Part shown: in pieces, positions 30,580-31,077 of the stretch | How the letters are laid out: each line of letters starts with the position of its first letter | Position numbering within the stretch: the stretch's first letter is position 1 | Assembly (NCBI GenBank): GCA_019637445.1 | Contig: JAHBVS010000004.1 | Coordinates: 1 to 64,000, forward strand | From: Gemmatimonadaceae bacterium | GTDB taxonomy: Bacteria > Gemmatimonadota > Gemmatimonadetes > Gemmatimonadales > Gemmatimonadaceae | Direction of reading: 5' to 3' | Length of the DNA stretch: 64,000 bases | The notes under the pieces: model-generated | Seen by the model: the letters and a program-made list of their open reading frames with translations, nothing else | The model's database searches: none | Told to the model about the DNA's origin: nothing | Position numbers and translations under genes: made by a program

Positions 30580-30608
30580 TTGCTTCGCTATTGGCGCACG
30601 GCTACTTT
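30580..30608 (+). promoter_or_regulatory. Promoter of the nuo operon
   Basis: TTGCTT (30580-30585), a 17-nt spacer and TACTTT (30603-30608). Predicted start near 30615, leaving a leader of about 58 nt that contains the Rex-like inverted repeat. Confidence 0.6.
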
Positions 30609-30626: not shown

Positions 30627-30646
30627 TTCGTGAATTTTTTCACGAA
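30627..30646 (+). promoter_or_regulatory. Candidate Rex-type redox operator in the nuo leader
   Basis: Perfect inverted repeat TTCGTGAA-TTTT-TTCACGAA. Counting outward from the centre it agrees with the Rex operator (TTGTGAAAT half-site) at 7 of 9 positions. It lies about 12-31 nt after the predicted transcription start, where a repressor would block elongation. Rex control of complex I operons is known in other phyla; no rex gene is in this window. Confidence 0.5.
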
Positions 30647-30672: not shown

Positions 30673-31077
30673 ATGGAACGGACGTACCTCCCAGTCCTTC
30701 TGCTCCTTGGATTTGTCGCCGTCAATGCGGTGCTCATCCTTGGGCTGTCGCATTTCCTGACGCGCGCCCGGCCGACGCCGGTGAAGCAAGAGGCCTACGA
30801 GTCGGGCATGCCCGTCCTCGGCGACGCGCGCGAACGCTTCTCCGTCAAGTTCTATATGGTGGCGATGCTGTTCATCGTCTTCGACATCGAGACGGTGTTC
30901 ATGATCCCCTGGGCCGCCTACTACCAGCAGCTCTCGTGCATGGCGCCGCTGGTGAGCGGCATCTGTCCGGGTGGCCAGCTCACCTTCTTCGGGCTCGGTG
31001 AGATGCTGGTCTTCGTTGCCATCCTGCTGGCGGGCTTCATCTACGTCTGGAAGAAGGGAGCGCTGCAATGGGATTGA
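30673..31077 (+). CDS. nuoA: NADH-quinone oxidoreductase subunit A
   Basis: Membrane subunit at the junction of the peripheral and membrane arms of complex I. The 134-residue product has three hydrophobic segments (about 5-27, 62-84, 102-124) and the family motifs [20 protein letters not shown] and [12 protein letters not shown], the acidic residues of which line the quinone/proton path. ATG 30673 has no Shine-Dalgarno; the preceding leader is C-rich. It is the first of 14 nuo genes in canonical A-N order, and its 3' end overlaps nuoB by 10 nt. Confidence 0.96.

What the first reader, a model, noticed from the sequence alone, without database searches (positions are those of the whole stretch)
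30627..30646. Rex-like redox operator in the leader of the complete nuo operon
The perfect repeat TTCGTGAA-TTTT-TTCACGAA sits 12-31 nt after the predicted start of a TTGCTT-N17-TACTTT promoter. From the centre outward it agrees with the Rex half-site (TTGTGAAAT) at 7 of 9 positions. Rex senses NADH/NAD+ and controls complex I genes in some phyla, so this would link NADH level to its main oxidase. The alternative is a plain RNA hairpin.
Basis: partly seen in the sequence, partly recalled or inferred. Interest (0 to 1): 0.62.

Follow-up and report, generated by a model that had tools for sequence, protein, structure and literature searches.

The report
Rex operator before gemmatimonad complex I
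The perfect repeat just before the complex I genes of this Gemmatimonas-like bacterium is very probably a docking site for Rex, a known NADH-sensing repressor that the genome encodes, so NADH level probably controls the respiratory chain here as it does in Streptomyces.

Summary
TTCGTGAA-TTTT-TTCACGAA lies at 30627-30646, 26 nt before nuoA. It is the only exact copy in the 3.35-Mb genome. The Rex reading is supported in silico; binding was not tested. (1) The genome has one bona fide rex gene. (2) Only four perfect TnGTGAA-N4-TTCACnA sites exist in the genome: directly before rex itself, before nuoA, before actA (alternative complex III), and between clpP and clpX. (3) Across 61 related genomes there are 183 such sites against 0 for the reversed-pattern control. 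(4) The nuo site is intact in 74 of 80 named gemmatimonad nuoA leaders. (5) Of two well-assembled genomes without detectable rex, one has no nuo site and the other a mutated one. (6) An RNA hairpin is disfavoured (outer pairs do not covary) and so is a CRP-type site (inner A/T required). Rex control of nuo, atp and rex is already proven in Streptomyces avermitilis, so this is a new member of a known kind. Less expected: an off-consensus third base kept at the nuo operator (fewer consensus T than at rex in 32 of 35 genomes), suggesting tuned affinity, and operators at alternative complex III, a cupredoxin gene and clpX.

The parts
30627..30646 (.). Rex operator, TTCGTGAA-TTTT-TTCACGAA
30580..30585 (+). 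putative -35 element TTGCTT (same register in same-genus nuo leaders; TTGACA-like in the rest of the family)
   Evidence: inferred, not measured
30603..30608 (+). putative -10 element TACTTT (TACTTT/TAGCTT/TACCTT in the genus)
   Evidence: inferred, not measured
30673..31077 (+). nuoA, first gene of the operon
   Evidence: PF00507
31068..45071 (+). nuoB to nuoN, complete complex I operon

Best explanation
The repeat is the operator of the NADH/NAD+-sensing repressor Rex. Inferred mechanism: when NADH is low, a Rex dimer (apo or NAD+-bound) sits on the two GTGAA half-sites just downstream of the nuo promoter and blocks RNA polymerase entry or escape. When NADH rises, NADH-bound Rex lets go and complex I is made, which re-oxidises NADH. 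Rex also represses its own gene and, through sites of the same kind, alternative complex III and probably ATP synthase. Shown here: the sequence, its conservation, the presence of rex and the other sites. Inferred: binding, direction of control, NADH response. A further inference: the conserved off-consensus third base at nuo makes it a weaker operator that is released before rex and act.
For: One rex gene, over the NCBIfam equivalog cut-off. The DNA-reading residues of T. maritima Rex (Arg48, Lys49, Arg60, Gly61; PMC8836258) are conserved in the VRKDLSFFGSFGKRG segment of the own and almost all aligned relatives' proteins. Exactly four perfect sites in 3.35 Mb, one ending 4 bp before the rex ATG. 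27 of 30 rex leaders carry a perfect site. Sites in 61 genomes: 116 + 67 against 0 control. The nuo site is conserved across the family and most of a second family. Other sites precede actA (14 of 14 same-genus loci), the atp operon, a cupredoxin gene, an NDH-2-like gene, cydA and etfB. Of two good assemblies without a detectable rex, G059 has no site in the genome and none at nuo, and G028 has a mutated nuo arm. S. avermitilis Rex is proven by EMSA, ChIP and footprint on nuoA1-N1, atp, cyd and rex, including a site with the same TTCACGA arm (PMC5355995).
Against: No binding or expression data for any gemmatimonad Rex. The half-site has C where the consensus has T. G011 and G047 have rex but no nuo site, and four tested nuo leaders of a third family (f3) lack it although rex was found in all four, so the nuo link is not universal. 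Only two complete-looking rex-less genomes are available.
Confidence: 0.93

Rival explanations
1. The repeat is a plain RNA hairpin in the 5' leader that acts on stability, translation or attenuation of nuo mRNA.
For: The + strand folds with a 9-pair stem, z-score -2.64, and the repeat lies in the presumed transcript.
Against: On 32 distinct nuo sites the three outer pairs are unpaired in 17, 10 and 14 sequences, no measure of covariation clearly exceeds the shuffles, and the inner five pairs do not vary in sequence apart from two disruptions. 41 of 74 named loci break the third pair. The same DNA motif stands before many unrelated genes and, at atp, overlaps the presumed -35.
Confidence: 0.03
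2. The site is bound by a CRP/FNR-family regulator, whose TGTGA-N6-TCACA consensus shares GTGA-N6-TCAC.
For: The core fits that consensus by sequence.
Against: The inner A and T outside the CRP core (columns 8 and 13) are present in 43 and 44 of 44 nuo sites and in all rex and act sites. TTGTGA-N6-TCACAA with other inner bases occurs three times in 37 genomes although nine times as many sequences would qualify, against dozens for the Rex form. The site is downstream of the promoter and is shared with rex.
Confidence: 0.03
3. A second, unknown repressor with Rex-like specificity reads the TCGTGAA variant at nuo, while Rex reads TTGTGAA at rex and act.
For: The third base differs consistently between nuo and rex or act sites.
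Against: Only one Rex is found per genome (other hits are weak or contig-edge pieces). Mixed sites occur: rex leaders with TCGTGAA in G041, G043 and G046. A footprinted S. avermitilis Rex site carries TTCACGA. The nuo site is absent or mutated in the two rex-less genomes.
Confidence: 0.05

Closest known systems
Rex regulon of Streptomyces avermitilis (nuoA1-N1, atpIBEFHAGDC, cydA1B1CD, rex-hemAC1DB, ndh2; PMC5355995)
   Same: Rex operator of the TTGTGAAN4TTCACAA type before complex I, ATP synthase and rex itself; whole-chain respiratory control
   Different: There nuo and atp sites overlap the -35 region; here the nuo site lies downstream of the presumed start. Here alternative complex III, a cupredoxin and clpX carry sites; cyd was seen with a site in one relative only.
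Rex operator of Staphylococcus aureus (TTGTGAAW4TTCACAA; PMC2883068)
   Same: Same core, same 4-bp AT-rich spacer, same 18-bp length
   Different: There Rex controls anaerobically induced genes; here aerobic respiratory chain genes. The nuo site here has C or A at half-site position 2.
T. maritima Rex-NAD+-operator complex (PDB 7WB3; PMC8836258)
   Same: Same family by sequence; Arg and Lys of the recognition helix and Arg-Gly of the wing conserved
   Different: Asn in place of T. maritima Asp191 in nearly all gemmatimonad Rex proteins aligned

Membership tests
Rex operator (ROP) | Inverted repeat GTGAA-N4-TTCAC with T-rich outer positions and 4-bp spacer | tested here: met
   Core and spacer exact; outer half-site base C instead of T on both arms
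Rex operator (ROP) | A rex gene in the same genome | tested here: met
   C1:200588-201223, NF003992 254.5 bits > 226
Rex operator (ROP) | Same motif in the rex leader (autoregulation) and before other NADH/respiratory genes | tested here: met
   rex 27 of 30 leaders, actA 14 of 14 in the genus, atp operon with a degenerate site
Rex operator (ROP) | Conservation at orthologous nuo leaders | tested here: met
   28 of 30 loci intact; 74 of 80 named loci, control windows 0
Rex operator (ROP) | Lost or decayed where rex is lost | tested here: inconclusive
   G059: no site; G028: mutated nuo arm and one unrelated site; only two genomes, both draft assemblies
Rex operator (ROP) | NADH-sensitive binding by Rex | not testable with these tools
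   needs EMSA or footprint
CRP/FNR operator | TGTGA-N6-TCACA with free inner N6 | tested here: not met
   Inner A/T nearly invariant; non-A/T versions with TTGTGA..TCACAA rare
Structured RNA leader | Compensatory changes keep the stem | tested here: not met

The most novel reading that the evidence does not exclude
Gemmatimonad Rex is a respiration-wide regulator with graded operators. A conserved third-base change (T to C or A) keeps the nuo operator weaker than those of rex and alternative complex III, so complex I is released at a lower NADH/NAD+ ratio than the rest. Rex also reaches into proteolysis through a conserved operator between clpP and clpX.
Probability: 0.35. Interest if true: 0.5.

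Novelty: new member of a known kind. Interest (0 to 1): 0.4.

Why it matters
It places the control of complex I, alternative complex III and ATP synthase of a widespread but little-studied phylum under a well-understood NADH sensor, and gives a concrete regulon to test. No held paper that mentions Gemmatimonas, Gemmatimonadetes or Gemmatimonadota together with Rex in this sense was found. The operon-specific base in the operator is a natural test of whether operator strength sets the order in which respiratory modules are switched on.

Tried and rejected
RNA hairpin: rejected on pair counts, although the own sequence folds well. Terminator on the minus strand: the scan flags one because of the ATTTTTG that follows on that strand; the A-run that produces it is not seen in the relatives' leaders, so rejected. 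CRP-type site: rejected. Strict sigma-70 scan found no promoter; the promoter rests on comparative spacing only. The key regulon survey (Ravcheev 2012) is not held. An ORF reference for the atpZ-like gene was first given with wrong coordinates, then corrected. A first leader scan read minus-strand loci in the wrong orientation and was redone.

Full report
What is there. The 20-bp perfect inverted repeat is at 30627-30646 as stated, 26 nt before the ATG of nuoA, which heads a complete nuoA-N operon. The 12-base motif TNGTGAAN4TTCACNA occurs once in the window and never in 100 shuffles. The exact 20-mer pattern occurs once in the genome.

A rex gene exists. A single rex (C1:200588-201223) passes the NCBIfam equivalog cut-off and Pfam PF06971/PF02629; its closest solved relatives are Rex proteins. 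The recognition-helix and wing residues that touch DNA in T. maritima Rex (PMC8836258) are conserved.

The genome points to Rex by itself. Only four perfect sites exist. C1:200566-200583 ends 4 bp before the rex ATG. C1:381346-381363 lies 45 bp before a multihaem cytochrome gene, which I read as actA of alternative complex III; that reading rests on sequence features and my own knowledge, since NCBIfam gives QrcA as nearest, below its cut-off. The third is C1:662715-662732, between clpP and clpX, and the fourth is the nuo site. One-mismatch sites lie before atpZ of the atp operon, before atpA, and before a plastocyanin-like gene.

Relatives. In 61 genomes the perfect motif occurs 183 times and its reversed control never. 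The rex leader carries it in 27 of 30 loci; of the three misses, G022 has a listed site at its rex start, and the G001 rex match is truncated. The actA leader carries it in 14 of 14 same-genus loci. The nuoA leader keeps an intact core in 28 of 30 family loci (G028 mutated, G011 absent), in 14 of 20 loci of other families at 11-12 of 12 positions, and in 74 of 80 named gemmatimonad loci with 0 in control windows (these 80 overlap with the other genomes). The f3 family keeps rex but shows no nuo site in four loci tested.

Rex loss. G059 (93% complete) has no rex by two searches, no nuo site and no site anywhere. G028 (98% complete) has no rex, and its nuo right arm reads TTGCACGAA; one other site remains.

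Rivals. A hairpin should covary; it does not, and many loci break the third pair. A CRP-type site should leave the inner six bases free; here the innermost A and T are nearly invariant, and TTGTGA..TCACAA with other inner bases is rare.

Mechanism. By analogy with S. avermitilis, where Rex bound in or downstream of promoters represses nuo, atp, cyd and rex and is released by NADH (PMC5355995), Rex here should block the nuo promoter at low NADH and release it at high NADH. Presumed -35 and -10 elements recur upstream of the operator in relatives, which places the operator at or just after the start.

What is less expected. The third base of the 20-mer half-site (TTCGTGAA) is C or A at nuo and T at rex and act: nuo left C24 A17 T3, right C41 T2 A1; rex T25 C3 and T27 C1; act T28 and T28. 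Within the same genome nuo has fewer consensus T than rex in 32 of 35 genomes, equal in 3, never more. In S. aureus, sites with mismatches bind more weakly, though this position (position 2 there) is not among those listed as reducing binding (PMC2883068). T. maritima Rex contacts the bases just outside the G through the minor groove. A weaker nuo operator is therefore plausible but unproven.

Placement. The named nuoA relatives are nearly all Gemmatimonadaceae, Gemmatimonas or Gemmatimonadetes MAGs. Rex control of complex I is established elsewhere, so this is a new member of a known kind in a phylum for which no Rex paper was found in the held library.

Noticed in passing
L045:7716-7733 (own genome C1:662715); L149:2535; L148:2544; L146:2557; L141:2614; L194:2448; L197:2463: A Rex-type operator is conserved between clpP and clpX in at least seven genomes, roughly 50-250 nt before the predicted clpX start; no held paper joins the Rex repressor with ClpX and ClpP.
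   Followed up: partly
rex protein, L044:10589-11224 and relatives L060-L088: Nearly all gemmatimonad Rex proteins aligned have Asn where T. maritima Rex has Asp191 (the alpha9 residue that pairs with Tyr100' in the NADH form); G022 keeps Asp.
   Followed up: no
L053:1501-1518 and L159-L180 (atp operon leaders): The atp operon leader keeps TTGCGAAANNTTTCACAA overlapping the presumed -35; in several same-genus members only the right half (TTTCACAA) remains beside a conserved TTGCGC.
   Followed up: partly
L055, L139, L140, L142, L192, L206: Perfect or one-mismatch sites before a plastocyanin-like cupredoxin gene in several genomes, a possible electron carrier co-regulated with alternative complex III.
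   Followed up: partly
L156:2494-2511, L205:2535-2552, L207:2535-2552: In single relatives perfect sites precede an NDH-2-like oxidoreductase gene, cydA and etfB, genes of the kind Rex controls elsewhere.
   Followed up: partly
L054 (C1:1420943) and L145: A near-perfect or perfect site overlaps the start region of a TetR-family gene next to a methionine sulfoxide reductase gene in two genomes.
   Followed up: no
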